From: Niallia circulans
Lineage (GTDB): Bacteria > Bacillota > Bacilli > Bacillales > Cytobacillaceae
Reading direction: 5' to 3'
DNA: 64,000 nt
Assembly (NCBI RefSeq): GCF_003726095.1
Contig: NZ_CP026031.1
Span: 4,962,001-5,026,000, forward strand
The number at the start of each line of letters is the position of its first letter. Within the stretch, counting starts at the first letter, position 1. The notes below the pieces were generated by a model. That model was not told the DNA's origin, searched no databases, and saw only the letters and a program-made list of their open reading frames with translations. This document shows, in pieces, positions 8,113 to 13,565 of the stretch. A program made the position numbers and the translations under genes.

Positions 8113-8874
8113 TTACTCAATCATCTTCTTCATCGCCTCATACATATTCTCCACATGCTTATCCACTTCATCACGAGACATCCGCAAACGATCTACGGAG
8201 CTGCCATAGCCAATTTCTAGCTTTCCTTCTTTTAACCCTTGGAATATTCCATCGGCAAACTCGTTTAATGGCTCTCCTGCTGTATGTAACCCGGCACCGC
8301 CTAAATCTGTATTTACAGCTGGAGGGGCAACTTCAATTACTTCTATAGAAGTGTCGGAAAGCTGATGTCTTAAGCTGACAGTGAAAGAATGCATGGCTGC
8401 TTTGGTTGCTGAATAAATGGGTGCAATAACCATCGGCGTAAAGGCTAAACCTGATGTTACATTAATAATGGCTGCATCTTCTTTTTCTGAAAAATAAGGT
8501 GTAAATAGCATAGACATTTGAATAGCAGCTTCCATATTAATCGTAATTTCTTTGCTGAAATAGCTCCAATCATTCTTCGCGTCCGCTTTTAACACATTAA
8601 AACGTTGTTGAATGCCTGCATTGTTTACTAATACGTTCACTTCTGGATAGTGCGCTGTTACCCACTCAAATAATTTAACACGTTCAGCTTCTACAGAGAG
8701 ATCGCTCACATATGTAATCAAGCTAGGATATTTTTCTTTTGCCTGTTGAAGTGCTTCTTCCCTGCGGCCACATACAATCACCGTATTTCCAGCGTTCATA
8801 AATCGTTCAGCAAAAGCTAAGCCAATCCCGGCATTTCCACCTGTAATAAGAATGGTATTATTAGAGAGTTTCAT
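8113..8874 (-). CDS. SDR-family oxidoreductase, DltE-like
   Basis: Classical short-chain dehydrogenase of 253 residues. The Rossmann motif TGGNAGIG is at residues 11-18, NNAG at 84-87, and the catalytic Ser141 with Tyr154-x3-Lys158 (YSATK). Sequence style matches the Bacillus DltE/YkvO-like group; despite the name this group has no proven role in teichoic acid D-alanylation. AGAGGAA seven bases before ATG supports the start. It is monocistronic and convergent with the AraC gene. The substrate is unknown. Confidence 0.85.
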   Translation of the reverse strand: MKLSNNTILITGGNAGIGLAFAERFMNAGNTVIVCGRREEALQQAKEKYPSLITYVSDLSVEAERVKLFEWVTAHYPEVNVLVNNAGIQQRFNVLKADAKNDWSYFSKEITINMEAAIQMSMLFTPYFSEKEDAAIINVTSGLAFTPMVIAPIYSATKAAMHSFTVSLRHQLSDTSIEVIEVAPPAVNTDLGGAGLHTAGEPLNEFADGIFQGLKEGKLEIGYGSSVDRLRMSRDEVDKHVENMYEAMKKMIE

Positions 8875-9064
8875 TGGGATTCCTCTTTTCGACTAATCAT
8901 ATTTTTTCCTTACTTTATCTATTATATCTTGTAATTTGCATATTTATTATTACCATAAGACTCCATTAATAGTGAATTATAGTTAGTTTAAAAAGTGGAA
9001 AAGAACAATTATTATGCGTATAGTCGTAATTTGTAGAATTTTCGTTTTATTTAATTGGAAAGTA

Positions 9065-9094
9065 TTGACAACGAAAAAAATATTACCATAAAAT
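9065..9094 (+). promoter_or_regulatory. Promoter of the bacteriocin-like operon
   Basis: TTGACA (9065-9070), an 18-base spacer and TAAAAT (9089-9094) form a sigma-A type promoter about 80 bases upstream of the precursor gene. The remainder of the gap 8875-9175 is AT-rich with the dehydrogenase promoter on the other strand. Confidence 0.6.
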
Positions 9095-9175
9095 TGGAAA
9101 TGGATTAAACTTTCTATTTTTATAGATGTTTAATTTAAAAGGTTGCACAAGGGGAAATTTAGGGGGGGGTTTTAG

Positions 9176-9499
9176 ATGATTACACAAGAAAAAATATCAA
9201 ATAAAGTTCTTTTGGTAGTTAGTTTTAGTAGTTTATTAGTTATATCAATTGTTCTTATTAATTTAGCTCAAGGTTCTTTTCATTTTAACTTAAGTTATTT
9301 AGTTCCTGGTTTATCTGCAGCAGCAGCATTAAATGGATTGAAAATTGCTAGTAAAGCATACAAAAAAACAAAGAATTTACGTACTGCCTTAAAATTTGTT
9401 GGATCTTGGAGTGTAGTTAGTTTTGTTATTGCTTATGGTGGAGATTGGTTAATCAGTATGCTTTTAGATGGTAACTTAAAAACACTAGCAAACTGGTAA
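9176..9499 (+). CDS. Candidate circular bacteriocin precursor
   Basis: 107 residues, no close match recognised. A charged N-terminus (residues 1-10) and a hydrophobic stretch (11-31) look like the AS-48 type leader of about 35 residues. The rest is alanine-rich and amphipathic, with a lysine/arginine patch at residues 56-73, hydrophobic helices at 74-86 and 91-97, and a terminal Trp, as in AS-48, uberolysin and amylocyclicin. If the core begins near Leu39 or Leu42 it would have 66-69 residues, within the 58-70 range of circular bacteriocins. The main support is context: the next genes match the membrane/DUF95/ATPase set of circular-bacteriocin loci. A G-rich ribosome-binding site precedes ATG 9176. 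Cleavage site and activity are inference. Confidence 0.6.
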   Translation: MITQEKISNKVLLVVSFSSLLVISIVLINLAQGSFHFNLSYLVPGLSAAAALNGLKIASKAYKKTKNLRTALKFVGSWSVVSFVIAYGGDWLISMLLDGNLKTLANW

Positions 9500-9553
9500 T
9501 ACTAATTTTATAACTTATTACCCCCTGTGCAACTCTATTTAATAGGAGATATT

Positions 9554-10897
9554 ATGGTGAAAAAATTTTTTTATCTATACTTATATTCGAATAAATATTA
9601 CATGAATCTTATAATAAGAGTATTGGAAAATAAGAATTTCAATTTTTTTAAGAAACATATTATTTATCTAGCTTTTATTTTATATGCTATCTTTTTCCTT
9701 TTTACTGTCTGTGTTCAAATTTTAGCCCATAACATGGGGAACACTACTATAGTTTTACAAAATATATTTATATTAGCTTTTCTAGCGATGTATTCTATTT
9801 TGCTAACTACAAATCTAGATATGAGCATAATAAGAGGATTTGTTGAGTCAAATATTTCAGTTAAAAACCGTTATATCTATTTATTAATCGTAGAATCCTA
9901 TATTCCTTTTTGTACATTTATATTTGCATTATTGTTTCAACTACCAGTAATCATAGGACAATCATATTTAAACGGTTCGAAAGGAATAATATTTAACTTA
10001 CACTTTATTGTATTTCTATTCATGATTTTTTTATTTATTACGTCACTGAAAATGTTTATCCAATCAATTAAATTAATATGGGATAAATATAATTTGATAA
10101 TAATGAAAGAAATATTTATATTTCTTCTAAGTATCGGAGTTACATTATTCTTTGATGAAATAGTGTATGTCGTTAAAAATATTATCACTTATTTTATTAA
10201 ATTTAATATGAATGTAGGATTAAATGAAAATAAATTTTTAAATTCATTTTCATTTTATAACTATAATTATGCTCGTGAATTAAAAATAATGATCCTCTTT
10301 ATTATTATATTTTTTCTTATTTCTTATTGTTTAAATAATAAGGATATTACGAAGGTTTATAGAGCACCTATACGAACTAAATCTAGTGTTTTAAGCATCC
10401 TATTTAGTAGATTTGGTTTATTTAATCAGAATTTTATTAGTTGTGTTGTTTTAATGAATATACTTAATAGTCCCATAGTAAAAAAAATTATTGGTGCTAA
10501 TGGGTTTCTTTTTTTTGGAATTCTAAGTTTATCACTATTCACAAAATATGTATTTGGTGAACTTGATAAATTCATTTATCTGAATAAGTTAAGTGAATTT
10601 AGAGTTGCGCTTTATTTTTCTTTTATGCATATTATTAGTTTAATTTCTGTATGTATTTTTGGAATAGCATTAAAAAATACATTCATTAGTATAGTAGATT
10701 TAATAAATTTAGTTATTACTCTAATATGTATCGATTTAATTTATTTTTGGCTTTTTTCTACTTTTATTAAATGGATAAAAAGTAAAGATTCTCTTTCAGA
10801 AATATTAACTCATCGAATTATTAATTTTGCTTCTATTATACCATTTCTTATTTATTCAATAATAAAAGGAGTAACTTATGCTATTGCATTATTTTAA
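9554..10897 (+). CDS. Large multispanning membrane protein of the bacteriocin-like operon
   Basis: About 447 residues, overwhelmingly hydrophobic with roughly ten predicted membrane helices and no catalytic motif seen. Circular-bacteriocin loci (As-48B, CclB, UblB type) encode a large membrane protein straight after the precursor, thought to act in maturation or secretion. Position and size fit, but homology was not recognised directly. AGGAG (9544-9548) precedes ATG 9554; the GTG at 9527 has no ribosome-binding site. It overlaps the next gene by 20 bases. The codons are very AT-rich. Confidence 0.65.
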   Translation: MVKKFFYLYLYSNKYYMNLIIRVLENKNFNFFKKHIIYLAFILYAIFFLFTVCVQILAHNMGNTTIVLQNIFILAFLAMYSILLTTNLDMSIIRGFVESNISVKNRYIYLLIVESYIPFCTFIFALLFQLPVIIGQSYLNGSKGIIFNLHFIVFLFMIFLFITSLKMFIQSIKLIWDKYNLIIMKEIFIFLLSIGVTLFFDEIVYVVKNIITYFIKFNMNVGLNENKFLNSFSFYNYNYARELKIMILFIIIFFLISYCLNNKDITKVYRAPIRTKSSVLSILFSRFGLFNQNFISCVVLMNILNSPIVKKIIGANGFLFFGILSLSLFTKYVFGELDKFIYLNKLSEFRVALYFSFMHIISLISVCIFGIALKNTFISIVDLINLVITLICIDLIYFWLFSTFIKWIKSKDSLSEILTHRIINFASIIPFLIYSIIKGVTYAIALF

Positions 10898-11429
10898 GAA
10901 ATTAAAAGCTTCATTTGTAATCTTTGGTATATTGTCGTTCCTATTTATAATTTTAAATATTCTCATTTTAACTACAGAAGTGAAGGGGAATTTGAATGTA
11001 AATGTACATGAAACCCTAGGAATATTTGAAGTGAAAATGATTTTTATTCACAATTTTCTTATATTTATAATCGTTATCCTATTGGGGAATCTTACCTTTG
11101 GCTTTTCAACAATAATATTATTAGCGATTACTTATTTTTTTACAGCATTTAGAATCGCTGAATACTATTCTTTAACAGGAAATAAGGCAATTGCTATATT
11201 TTCCGTATTACTCCATGGAATATTTGAACTAATGGCTATCTCTATTTCAGCAGATATATCATTTGAAACTTTTAGAAGATGGATATTTCCAAAAAAGAAC
11301 TTTTCATTTAGAAGTAAAGAGTTCTTCAATACAACTTTATTTAAACTAATAATAGGTATTTCTTTATTATTTTTAGCAGCATTAATAGAAATTTTTTTTA
11401 CTTCTAAGTTTTTAACTCTATTGCAATAA
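10878..11429 (+). CDS. DUF95/SpoIIM-like membrane protein
   Basis: 183 residues with about five membrane helices. The hallmark of the stage II sporulation protein M (DUF95) family is visible: IHNFLIF in the second helix, HGIFELMAISISADISFE in the middle and LFLAALIEIFFTSKF at the C-terminus. DUF95 proteins are a constant component of circular-bacteriocin clusters (AS-48C, CclC and UblC type), where they help maturation or immunity. GGAG precedes ATG 10878 inside the preceding gene, suggesting coupled translation. Confidence 0.78.
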   Translation: MLLHYFKKLKASFVIFGILSFLFIILNILILTTEVKGNLNVNVHETLGIFEVKMIFIHNFLIFIIVILLGNLTFGFSTIILLAITYFFTAFRIAEYYSLTGNKAIAIFSVLLHGIFELMAISISADISFETFRRWIFPKKNFSFRSKEFFNTTLFKLIIGISLLFLAALIEIFFTSKFLTLLQ

Positions 11430-11446
11430 GTGAAGGAGGGTTTCAT

Positions 11447-12121
11447 ATAATTAAGATTAATAATATTTCCAAAAGTTATAGAGGAAAATATGTTTTTGGT
11501 CCATTTAATATTAATATTGAGAAAAAGCGTATTTATGTACTTATTGGTGGAAATGGTGCAGGTAAAACAACCTTATTACGTGGACTGGCAGGGTTGATAA
11601 AATTCAATGAAAAAAAAGATGATTTTAGTGATAATTTCTATTTTGTTGGAGAGGAAATGAATGTTTTAGAATATTTGACAGGAAGAGAAAATTTATTTCT
11701 AATAGCAAAATTAAAGAAAATAGATACAAAGAAAATTGATTCAATAATTAAATTAAATAAACTAGAATCTTTTATTGATAATTTAGTTTTAACATATTCT
11801 AAAGGAATGTTGGAAAAATTAAAATTATCTATTGGTTTACTAGTTTCTCCAAAAGTATTACTACTTGATGAACCATTTACTTCGTTAGATGTAATAAATT
11901 TAAATTTATTACAAAATAACATAAGAGAATTTACTAGAAGTGGTGATCATTCCGTAATATTATCTTCTCACTCATTAGAGACTATTATGGGTATGGCAGA
12001 TCAATTATTAATATTAAATGAAGGTAATCTAAAAAATATAGATAGAATAAAAGGTAATGTTAAAGAATTAAGACGAATTATTTCAAGAAACATAGGCGGT
12101 GATGAAAGTGAAAAAAATTAG
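11447..12121 (+). CDS. ABC transporter ATPase of the bacteriocin-like operon (non-AUG start)
   Basis: About 224 residues. Walker A GGNGAGKTTLL is near residue 35, the signature-like YSKGMLEKLKL near 120, Walker B VLLLDEPFTSLD near 142 and the H-loop SSHS near 176. The first canonical start in frame (TTG 11594) would delete Walker A, so translation must begin earlier. A strong AAGGAGG (11433-11439) sits seven bases before ATA 11447 and ten before ATT 11450; no ATG, GTG or TTG exists there in frame. AUU or AUA initiation is therefore inferred; a sequence error is the alternative. It follows the DUF95 gene by 17 bases and overlaps the next gene. Confidence 0.8.
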   Translation: MIKINNISKSYRGKYVFGPFNINIEKKRIYVLIGGNGAGKTTLLRGLAGLIKFNEKKDDFSDNFYFVGEEMNVLEYLTGRENLFLIAKLKKIDTKKIDSIIKLNKLESFIDNLVLTYSKGMLEKLKLSIGLLVSPKVLLLDEPFTSLDVINLNLLQNNIREFTRSGDHSVILSSHSLETIMGMADQLLILNEGNLKNIDRIKGNVKELRRIISRNIGGDESEKN

Positions 12122-12602
12122 TAATATATTATTATTTCTCTTACTAGTAGGTTGTCAATTATTTATGTTGGGCTATGGTTATAAAACAGTTGATGTAGAT
12201 GAATATTATCATTTTGTAAATCTAATACAAACAGATATAAATTATAAAATTGTATTGTTGATGCTAATTTTATTAATTGTAGTTGCTATATTATTTGTAG
12301 TTTATTTTTCTGTTACGATATTTTTGTTAATTTCAAACAAGGTGCTAAGCTTAGAGTTAACCTTTAACTTTGTATACTATTTAGTTGCTATAAATCTCAT
12401 AATTACAGCTTTCCATGTTTTTTTATATGAGGTATTTAAGGGAAATTCTATATTTGCATTATATTTAAATCCTTTAGTGCTGCTTAGCACTGTTGTAATT
12501 CTTATACTTACGTTCTTTAATACTAGAAAGATTTTAGCTTCTATACTATTTTCAATTTTATTTTATGTAGTTAATTTAATGATTACACTAATTTTTTACT
12601 AA
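12108..12602 (+). CDS. Small membrane protein, possible immunity protein
   Basis: About 164 residues with about five hydrophobic segments and short loops; no family recognised. As last gene of the operon, overlapping the ATPase by 14 bases, it occupies the place of the permease or immunity protein in circular-bacteriocin clusters. GTG 12108 has AGGCGG eight bases upstream; ATG 12102 in the same frame lies too close to that site. Function is inferred from position only. Confidence 0.6.
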   Translation: MKKISNILLFLLLVGCQLFMLGYGYKTVDVDEYYHFVNLIQTDINYKIVLLMLILLIVVAILFVVYFSVTIFLLISNKVLSLELTFNFVYYLVAINLIITAFHVFLYEVFKGNSIFALYLNPLVLLSTVVILILTFFNTRKILASILFSILFYVVNLMITLIFY

Positions 12603-12809
12603 TTTTATAAAAAAGAAGGATAATCTTGAAAGCAATTTTTTATAGAGAATTTACAATCATTGGTCTATGATTTTTCAATAGAATTAAATTTTAAAAAGAC
12701 ATAAAAAAATGGTCGGGTTTTATAAAAGGTAGTAATTAATCTATGCTGAAAATGAATAACCCAAAACAACCTCATAAAAATATGATACGATGATCATGAG
12801 GTGGAAATT

Positions 12810-13565
12810 TTGGAACAATTAATTTATACACTTTTAGCGTACATAAATAATTCTTTAGAAAAAGATATTAACTATTCCATCGCCAATAGTTTCCTGGAAA
12901 ATATTCATCATATAGAAGGCTATTCTTTAGAAATGGCTGCGGAAGTATGTAATGTTGCCCCATCTACAATTAATCGTTTCTGTAAGCGAATTGGCTTCCG
13001 TAACTTTTCGAATCTCCGCAGTAGTGTTGCTTATCATGGGGGAATGTATGAGGAAAGGGAAAAGAGCTTAACTACAGAAACATTTGAATTAAAACTAAAG
13101 GAAAATATCGAGATAATGGAAAGAATTTCCAGAGTGCAACTAGACCGTATCATAAAAAAGATTCATGAGTCTAAAAGAATTGTCATATTAGGATTTGAAA
13201 AACATCAAATTCAAGCGATGGAGCTTCAAAAGCAATTATTTCTGCTCGGAAAGCTATGTGAATGCAATACGAATTTTTTTAAACAATTGGAAACAGTCTC
13301 TCATTTGACAGAAGAAGATATGATTATTACCATTTCCATTGAAGGAAACATCCTGACAGAAGCGTTAGCAATCAAAGAAAAAATTAAGGCAGCAAGCGGG
13401 AAGAAATTGCTAATTACTTTTTCAGATTCCGAGAAGCACCAACAAATATTTGATGAGATTTTACAATGTGGAAAAATTGATAATAGTGCTGTGAGTAGTT
13501 ATACCTTATTACGTTTGTTTGATATTCTCATCTATCACTATCAAAAACGATATCCTTCTTTCTAA
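12810..13565 (+). CDS. MurR/RpiR-family transcriptional regulator
   Basis: About 251 residues: an N-terminal HTH_6 domain (residues 1-75, with MAAEVCNVAPSTINRFCKRIGFRNF) and a C-terminal SIS-like sugar-phosphate domain (about 100-240) that is rather degenerate. Relatives sense phosphosugars and control beta-glucoside or amino-sugar genes. It lies 80 bases upstream of the GH1 phospho-beta-glucosidase and very likely regulates it. TTG 12810 has AGGTGG five bases upstream; GTG 12801 lies inside that site. Confidence 0.83.
   Translation: MEQLIYTLLAYINNSLEKDINYSIANSFLENIHHIEGYSLEMAAEVCNVAPSTINRFCKRIGFRNFSNLRSSVAYHGGMYEEREKSLTTETFELKLKENIEIMERISRVQLDRIIKKIHESKRIVILGFEKHQIQAMELQKQLFLLGKLCECNTNFFKQLETVSHLTEEDMIITISIEGNILTEALAIKEKIKAASGKKLLITFSDSEKHQQIFDEILQCGKIDNSAVSSYTLLRLFDILIYHYQKRYPSF

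What the first reader, a model, noticed from the sequence alone, without database searches (positions are those of the whole stretch)
9065..12602. Divergent circular-bacteriocin-like operon
Seen: a compact five-gene operon with a 107-residue precursor-like protein ending in Trp, a 447-residue membrane protein, a clear DUF95/SpoIIM-type protein, an ABC ATPase and a small membrane protein. Known: AS-48, circularin A and uberolysin loci have this same set. Inferred: a head-to-tail cyclised peptide of about 66-69 residues (start near Leu39-Leu42, end at Trp107). The core does not resemble any bacteriocin I know closely; its basic patch lies in residues 56-73.
Basis: partly seen in the sequence, partly recalled or inferred. 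Interest (0 to 1): 0.8.

Follow-up and report, generated by a model that had tools for sequence, protein, structure and literature searches.

The report
New divergent circular-bacteriocin-type gene cluster
A bacterial chromosome carries a five-gene cluster that most likely makes a ring-shaped antimicrobial peptide, from a rare family that the standard sequence models for such peptides did not recognise.

Summary
The operon is real: a 107-aa precursor ending in Trp, a ~447-aa hydrophobic protein B, SpoIIM/DUF95, an ABC ATPase and a ~166-aa hydrophobic protein E. It belongs to a small family: 16 precursors were aligned, and all 7 loci whose DNA I read have a precursor gene with B, SpoIIM, ATPase and an E-sized gene, though one precursor looks frameshifted and one B gene is in pieces. 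The SpoIIM is the circular-bacteriocin kind. The predicted border (F-N/L39) fits published cleavage sites, all 16 cores end in Trp or Tyr, and between two operons the core differs at 1 of 69 residues, the leader at 8 of 39. Against plain membership: 0 of 7 precursors scanned hit PF09221 or TIGR03651 (10 of 10 reference cores do), B is not detectably related, and the basic patch lies at core residues 15-35 instead of 52-65. Cyclisation and killing are inferred. The window's ATPase lacks a standard start codon. Verdict: new variant of a known kind, about 0.78.

The parts
9176..9499 (+). Precursor peptide gene (107 aa). Predicted leader residues 1-38 (helix 9-31 in a low-confidence model), predicted core residues 39-107 (69 aa, Leu39 to Trp107).
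   Evidence: family alignment; model; core properties; leader/core border.
9290..9496 (+). Predicted core segment to be joined head to tail; basic residues at core positions 18, 22, 25, 26, 28, 31, 35, 64; net charge +6, no Cys.
   Evidence: Cleavage and ligation are inferred.
9554..10897 (+). Gene B: 447-aa hydrophobic (presumed multispanning) protein, presumed partner of the ATPase in processing/export.
   Evidence: No Pfam or NCBIfam match at E<=1; homologous to B of five other loci (hhalign 96.1%, E 2.9e-9; BLASTP 1e-6 to P0006); no match to B of canonical clusters.
10878..11429 (+). Gene C: SpoIIM/DUF95 protein of the circular-bacteriocin type.
   Evidence: PF01944 E 1.7e-10; hhalign to canonical bacteriocin SpoIIM E 2.3e-8 alone and 7.4e-19 as a family, against 0.2% and 8.2% probability to the genome's own other SpoIIM; best match lies in the bacteriocin cluster in 4 of 4 genomes, two of them near-duplicates.
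11447..12121 (+). Gene D: ABC-transporter ATPase; P-loop intact, but no ATG/GTG/TTG start before it (ATA 11447 or ATT 11450 would have to serve).
12102..12602 (+). Gene E: ~166-aa hydrophobic protein, candidate immunity protein; homologue of a gene that sits upstream of the precursor in six other loci.
   Evidence: hhalign to those six: 75.9%, E 2.3e-5; E against three other proteins or sets 0.1-0.2%. The start codon (GTG 12099 or ATG 12102) is my choice; comparisons used a slice from 12111.

Best explanation
A circular-bacteriocin-type RiPP cluster of a precursor family outside the existing models. Shown: a conserved gene set (precursor, hydrophobic protein B, SpoIIM/DUF95, ABC ATPase, small hydrophobic protein E) and a precursor with a fast-changing leader and a constant 68-69-residue cationic, Cys-free core that begins with L/I/M/F (if the border is right) and ends in Trp or Tyr. 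Inferred: the hydrophobic leader keeps the precursor at the membrane; it is cut after residue 38 (F-N / L); the SpoIIM protein with B and the ATPase join Leu39 to Trp107 and export the ring; the ring inserts into membranes of competing Gram-positive bacteria with core residues 15-35 as the cationic face; protein E, with the ATPase, gives self-immunity.
For: Gene set in 7 of 7 loci read, same order precursor-B-SpoIIM-ATPase as in a canonical cluster (L053). SpoIIM: family profile vs canonical bacteriocin SpoIIM 99.1%, E 7.4e-19, vs the genome's own other (sporulation-type) SpoIIM 8.2%, E 0.0042; the cluster SpoIIM is the best hit in 4 of 4 TIGR03651-positive genomes. Border: aromatic at -2 in 14 of 16, N/D/E/Q/H/S at -1 in 16 of 16, L/I/M/F at +1 in 16 of 16, as in leaders MFD and MLFN and the MFE motif (passages of PMC10028692; section 4 of PMC8659200). 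C-terminal Trp/Tyr 16 of 16; an aromatic last residue is required in circularin A. Column identity 0.18 in residues 1-36 vs 0.52 in 39-107. Between L023 and L024, 8 of 39 leader and 1 of 69 core residues differ while SpoIIM, ATPase and E-type proteins are 54, 64 and 66% identical. The stretch most like the known N-terminal G-[IVM]-xxxx-A block is the conserved PG[LI]S-type block at core position 6-7 in 14 of 16.
Against: 0 of 7 precursors scanned hit TIGR03651 or PF09221 at E<=1, while 10 of 10 reference cores do at E<=3e-4 (over the curated cut-off: 7 of 10 and 8 of 10). Core profiles do not align above shuffled controls. B unrelated by profile and in 4 genomes searched. The ATPase is not specifically like canonical ones: the cluster ATPase ranks 1st, 2nd, 6th and 8th in four genomes. 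Structure models unreliable (pLDDT 56.8 and 48.8). The N-terminal block is weak: scores >=10.5 occur in 39 of 42,268 windows of 162 frames, at least one of them a family precursor. At position 1, circularin A made little product with Leu and none with Met. The uberolysin and lactocyclicin leaders (MDILLE, MK) lack the aromatic at -2. The window copy's ATPase lacks a standard start, so this copy may be impaired.
Confidence: 0.78

Rival explanations
1. The small protein is a linear exported peptide (bacteriocin or signal) or an uncleaved small membrane toxin; the SpoIIM/ATPase/B set exports it or gives immunity, with no ring formed.
For: Cyclisation cannot be read from sequence; no match to circular-bacteriocin models in the 7 precursors scanned; an N-terminal hydrophobic helix as in any small membrane protein.
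Against: SpoIIM/DUF95 is a constant part of the circular-bacteriocin clusters surveyed (PMC8534725 section 5; PMC8659200 section 4) and this SpoIIM is of that kind. A constant core length (69 aa in 15, 68 in one of 16) beside leaders of 35-51 aa, and a terminal Trp/Tyr in 16 of 16, have no obvious reason in a linear peptide.
Confidence: 0.13
2. The small protein is a subunit of the membrane complex itself (for example a transporter accessory protein) and not a secreted product.
For: The neighbours are hydrophobic proteins and an ATPase; the peptide is hydrophobic.
Against: Two-rate evolution inside one small protein, and a core far more conserved than its would-be partners (68 of 69 residues identical vs 54-66% identity, one pair of operons), do not suit a co-evolving subunit.
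Confidence: 0.05
3. The window's copy is a decaying cluster that no longer makes product, whatever the family does (not exclusive of the best explanation).
For: The ATPase lacks ATG/GTG/TTG before the P-loop; in two other genomes the cluster is damaged (B gene in pieces between insertion sequences in L050, precursor apparently frameshifted in L052).
Against: The other window frames are intact; the ATPase frame is open from the ATA/ATT codons to its stop with intact P-loop, and AAGGAGG sits at a suitable distance.
Confidence: 0.25

Closest known systems
Enterocin AS-48 / circularin A / uberolysin family (PF09221, TIGR03651), subgroup i circular bacteriocins
   Same: Gene set and order precursor-B-SpoIIM-ATPase (L053); SpoIIM homologous; predicted core length; hydrophobic first and aromatic last residue; cationic, Cys-free core; a G-[IVLM]-xxxx-A block near the start of the core; hydrophobic leader of 35-51 aa (35 in AS-48, recalled; 2-48 in the class).
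   Different: No hit to either model in 7 of 16 precursors scanned; B without detectable relation; basic patch at core 15-35 instead of 52-65 (PMC7132975 passages); a family-specific small gene E; GRAVY of the 16 cores 0.32-0.70 versus 0.54-1.06 in ten reference cores.
Gassericin A / butyrivibriocin AR10 type, subgroup ii circular bacteriocins (PF16942 CclA_1 considered)
   Same: Basic region in the N-terminal half of the core (14-19 in family ii, PMC7132975 passages).
   Different: No PF16942 hit in the 7 precursors scanned; strongly cationic (+3 to +9) rather than near neutral; ends in Trp/Tyr, not Ala; no conserved Asn at the cut (Asn at -1 in 5 of 16).
Yip1-type proteins of circular-bacteriocin clusters
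   Same: Small hydrophobic protein in the cluster; a downstream protein in L049 scores Yip1 at E 0.0027, below the cut-off.
   Different: Gene E and its upstream homologues do not align with the 185-aa protein of a canonical cluster that I took as Yip1-like by eye.

Membership tests
Head-to-tail cyclised bacteriocin clusters (broad class) | Precursor, SpoIIM/DUF95 and ABC ATPase genes together | tested here: met
   criterion from section 4 of PMC8659200 and section 5 of PMC8534725.
Head-to-tail cyclised bacteriocin clusters (broad class) | SpoIIM of the bacteriocin-cluster kind | tested here: met
   (the genome's own other SpoIIM as control).
Head-to-tail cyclised bacteriocin clusters (broad class) | Hydrophobic first residue and hydrophobic/aromatic last residue of the core | tested here: met
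   16 of 16 at column 39 and at the C-terminus; the start position itself is predicted.
Head-to-tail cyclised bacteriocin clusters (broad class) | Mature core of 58-70 residues, no Cys pairs | tested here: inconclusive
   68-69 residues if cut at column 39; no Cys in 16 of 16 cores; the cut is predicted only. Range from passages of PMC7132975.
Head-to-tail cyclised bacteriocin clusters (broad class) | Overlapping (translationally coupled) genes | tested here: met
   20-nt overlaps at 10878-10897 and, with ATG 12102, at 12102-12121; coupling itself not tested.
Head-to-tail cyclised bacteriocin clusters (broad class) | Compact bundle of 4-5 helices (saposin-like) | tested here: inconclusive
   Helices predicted but pLDDT 56.8 / 48.8, pTM 0.28 / 0.27; no fold search made because of this.
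Head-to-tail cyclised bacteriocin clusters (broad class) | Peptide bond between N- and C-terminus; antimicrobial activity | not testable with these tools
   Needs expression and mass spectrometry.
AS-48/circularin/uberolysin sequence family (PF09221, TIGR03651) | Match to the family models | tested here: not met
   0 of 7 precursors scanned (of 16) hit at E<=1; reference cores 10 of 10 at E<=3e-4, over the cut-off 7 of 10 (TIGR03651) and 8 of 10 (PF09221).
AS-48/circularin/uberolysin sequence family (PF09221, TIGR03651) | Polybasic region at core residues 52-65 | tested here: not met
   Most K/R at core 15-35 in 16 of 16 (24-31 in L050), with at most two elsewhere; position of the usual region from passages of PMC7132975.
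AS-48/circularin/uberolysin sequence family (PF09221, TIGR03651) | Homologous B membrane protein | tested here: not met
   hhalign 0.7%; no match to the cluster B in 4 genomes (one unrelated hit at E 0.033). Sensitivity for such proteins is limited.

The most novel reading that the evidence does not exclude
A third architectural group of circular bacteriocins: the ring's cationic membrane-binding face is built by the first helices after the ligation point instead of the last ones, and it is made by a SpoIIM/ATPase pair with an unrelated B partner and its own small immunity protein. It may be a circularly permuted version of the classical ring, or an independent invention of the peptide that took over the same ligation machinery. 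Either way, the part shared with classical systems (SpoIIM, ATPase, terminal residues) would point to the elusive cyclase.
Probability: 0.3. Interest if true: 0.68.

Novelty: new variant of a known kind. Interest (0 to 1): 0.52.

Why it matters
No enzyme that cuts and joins circular bacteriocins had been identified (PMC8659200 section 4). A rare, very divergent set that keeps SpoIIM and an ATPase but has a precursor and a B protein without detectable relation narrows the search for what is essential. It also shows that precursor-based models can miss a whole family, and offers an antimicrobial scaffold with a different charge layout.

Tried and rejected
Chance matches: FlhB, DUF2398, YabQ, BioY, LspA, lactococcin_972 and similar hits of the precursors (E 0.004-1) are all below curated cut-offs. 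In one search, 38 of 193 genomes matched at E<=0.01; all but the window's own were weak (18-25 bits) and nearly all inside frames of 371-1324 aa, so I set aside 37. In one search, 11 of 397 genomes matched; I kept 5 (E<=3.4e-7) and set aside 6 (E 0.001-0.007).

Homology of cores by profile: no signal against ten reference cores, singly or doubled to allow circular permutation (scores 10.1-13.3; maxima of 60 shuffles each 17.3 and 16.9), so permutation is neither shown nor excluded. PDB: the window precursor alone gave four chance matches (E 0.43-1.2), the family profile two (E 0.62). Structure prediction: two jobs, both too unsure for a fold search, which I did not run.

ATPase as a marker: generic. 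Gene E as Yip1: not supported. An inverted repeat around the precursor gene pairs in the predicted RNA, but 17 of 1000 shuffles pair as well and the overall fold is ordinary. Phage records: no match. Plasmid search: two records; the Sinorhizobium one (E 0.2) was set aside.

Literature: of searches I saw the listings (20 of 90, 2 of 2, 3 of 3, 20 of 123, 15 of 35 and 4 of 4 papers); no title or abstract start described this family, and no paper of the library held the three longer sequence blocks asked. I opened four papers: PMC8659200 (outline, section 4), PMC8534725 (outline, section 5), PMC7132975 (outline, passages), PMC10028692 (passages). The papers that hold both 'circular bacteriocin' and Staphylococcus delphini or Niallia were not opened. 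Supplementary tables, where mined precursors are listed, could not be read, so an earlier listing cannot be excluded.
Full report
The window encodes five tightly packed genes on the + strand: a 107-aa precursor-like protein (9176-9499) ending LANW, a 447-aa hydrophobic protein B (ATG 9554, stop 10897), a SpoIIM/DUF95 protein (10878-11429; PF01944 E 1.7e-10), an ABC ATPase (to 12121; ABC_tran E 2.7e-17) and a ~166-aa hydrophobic protein E (to 12602). No transmembrane prediction was run; 'membrane' is read from the sequences. B and SpoIIM overlap by 20 nt, as do the ATPase and E. The ATPase frame has no ATG, GTG or TTG ahead of its P-loop; ATA 11447 or ATT 11450, after AAGGAGG, would have to serve. 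A homologue in L051 begins MIKVNN; the window frame reads (ATA) IKINN.

The precursor is one of a family. One search gave three relatives, a plasmid search one in Pseudalkalibacillus hwajinpoensis, and a profile search 12 proteins at E<=1, all with E<=4.3e-24 (three of them the earlier ones), four with named sources: Niallia taxi, Alkalihalobacillus sp. CinArs1, Staphylococcus delphini and Oenococcus sp. UCMA 16435. With two from whole genomes, 16 precursors were aligned. The family looks rare: 5 of 397 genomes of the order after setting aside six weak ones, 3 of 398 of the class, 1 of 398 of the phylum (the window's own), 1 of 84 of the genus of G917, which is the S. delphini genome judging by an identical precursor and contig length, and, with the single sequence, 1 of 13 genomes of the window's genus. 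In some searches at most 11-12 candidates a genome were scored, so those are lower bounds.

The operon is conserved. I read DNA of seven loci: the window, L023, L024, and L049, L050, L051, L052. All seven have a precursor gene, B, SpoIIM, ATPase and a small hydrophobic gene of 164-178 aa. In six the small gene lies just upstream of the precursor; in the window its homologue is the last gene (hhalign 75.9%, E 2.3e-5; E against three other proteins or sets 0.1-0.2%; by BLASTP alone only E 0.071). Two loci are damaged: in L050 the B gene is in pieces among insertion sequences, and in L052 the precursor matches in two frames. L049 has a further gene downstream, weakly Yip1-like (E 0.0027, below cut-off). 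L025 and L026 have the contig lengths of L023 and L024 and are not counted.

The SpoIIM protein is the circular-bacteriocin kind. The family profile aligns with SpoIIM of three clusters next to TIGR03651-positive precursors at 99.1%, E 7.4e-19, but with the genome's own other SpoIIM (231 aa, PF01944 E 3.7e-33; taken as the sporulation protein) only at 8.2%, E 0.0042; the window protein alone gives 95.3%, E 2.3e-8, against 0.2%. In four TIGR03651-positive genomes the best hit of the profile was the SpoIIM inside the bacteriocin cluster, 4 of 4, though G013 and G014 carry near-identical clusters; I did not check that those genomes have a sporulation SpoIIM. By contrast the ATPase is generic: the cluster ATPase ranks 1st, 2nd, 6th and 8th among ABC hits of the four genomes. 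B shows no relation to canonical B, though B is conserved within the family.

The leader/core border can be placed. Columns 1-36 have mean pairwise identity 0.18, columns 39-107 0.52. At column 37 an aromatic residue stands in 14 of 16, at 38 N/D/E/Q/H/S in 16 of 16, and at 39 L/I/M/F in 16 of 16. Published short leaders include MFL, MLFN and MFD, and an MFE motif precedes the cut in the uberolysin group; among nine short leaders 67% have a charged residue at -1 and 56% an aromatic one at -2, but MDILLE and MK have no aromatic there (passages of PMC10028692; section 4 of PMC8659200). In circularin A the last residue must be aromatic and the first a short-sidechain hydrophobic one: Leu gave little product, Met none, Phe was not measured (passages). 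Here the last is Trp or Tyr in 16 of 16. Leaders run from 35 to 51 aa while the core is 69 aa in 15 and 68 in one. Between L023 and L024, whose SpoIIM, ATPase and E-type proteins are 54%, 64% and 66% identical, the leader differs at 8 of 39 residues and the core at 1 of 69; in that precursor's own numbering the leader changes stop at residue 36 and the predicted core starts at 40. This is what is expected if residues from about there on are the product; it is one pair of operons.

Relation to known circular bacteriocins. Core profiles do not align above shuffled controls. The one sequence link is short: scoring every 10-residue stretch of each precursor against the G-[IVM]-xxxx-A block of ten known cores, the best stretch is the conserved PG[LI]S-type block at core position 6-7 in 14 of 16; the relatives are not independent, and in 162 frames used as background (at least one a family precursor) 39 of 42,268 windows score >=10.5, so the block is suggestive, not proof. 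The divergent L050 core has G6, P8, V11 and A12 in the same places as AS-48.

The charge layout differs. Most K/R residues lie at core 15-35 in the 16 family members (24-31 in L050), with at most two elsewhere (position 3 or 53-65); in the ten reference cores most lie at 40-66, with up to three at 3-21. A survey gives 52-65 for family i and 14-19 for family ii (passages of PMC7132975). Net charge is +3 to +9, pI 9.7-11.2, no Cys in any of the 16 cores. Structure prediction gave helices only at low confidence (pLDDT 56.8 for the precursor, 48.8 for the core).

Surroundings. The operon sits between an SDR gene (8113-8874, minus; adh_short E 2.9e-44) and a gene that looks RpiR-type (12801-13565; named by eye). 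Among 13 genomes of the genus, five have both flanks adjacent: the window; G166 and G175 with no such operon (170 bp between the matches in G166; in G175 a gene that looks MerR-type); and G167 and G169, where the same interval holds a radical-SAM/SPASM protein and an ABC transporter (for G167, nearest model a ranthipeptide maturase, 169 bits against a cut-off of 340). The slot thus appears to exchange peptide clusters.

Mechanism, with steps marked. Shown by sequence: gene set, SpoIIM kinship, constant core, terminal residues. Inferred: cut after residue 38, joining of Leu39 to Trp107 by SpoIIM/B/ATPase, export, membrane killing through the cationic first half of the core, and immunity by gene E. 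The window copy may be weak or silent because of its ATPase start. I file it as a new variant of the broad class of head-to-tail cyclised bacteriocin clusters, not as a member of the PF09221/TIGR03651 sequence family.

Noticed in passing
window 11427-11460: The ABC ATPase gene has no ATG/GTG/TTG start ahead of its P-loop; ATA or ATT after AAGGAGG would have to start it. Either a rare start codon or a recent lesion.
   Followed up: partly
window 8874-12801; L083, L084, L085, L086: The same chromosomal interval holds a radical-SAM/SPASM protein plus an ABC transporter (a probable other RiPP cluster) in two sister genomes and neither cluster in two more: an exchange slot for peptide clusters.
   Followed up: partly
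window 9141-9155 and 9519-9533: A GC-rich inverted repeat brackets the precursor gene and pairs in the predicted RNA; 17 of 1000 shuffles pair as well.
   Followed up: partly
L023 11029-11403; L024 11050-11436: A similar small protein with a signal-peptide-like start (124-128 aa; the one scanned, P0009, has no Pfam or NCBIfam match at E<=1) follows the ATPase in these two operons; the window has another gene there.
   Followed up: no
G013:C1:4578699-4579896: A second SpoIIM-type match beside an ABC ATPase match, each with one in-frame stop, in a genome that also has a canonical circular-bacteriocin cluster: a possible relic cluster.
   Followed up: no
L052 1198-1514; L050 5074-9878: Damaged family clusters: a precursor matching in two frames in L052 and a B gene in pieces between insertion sequences in L050.
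   Followed up: partly
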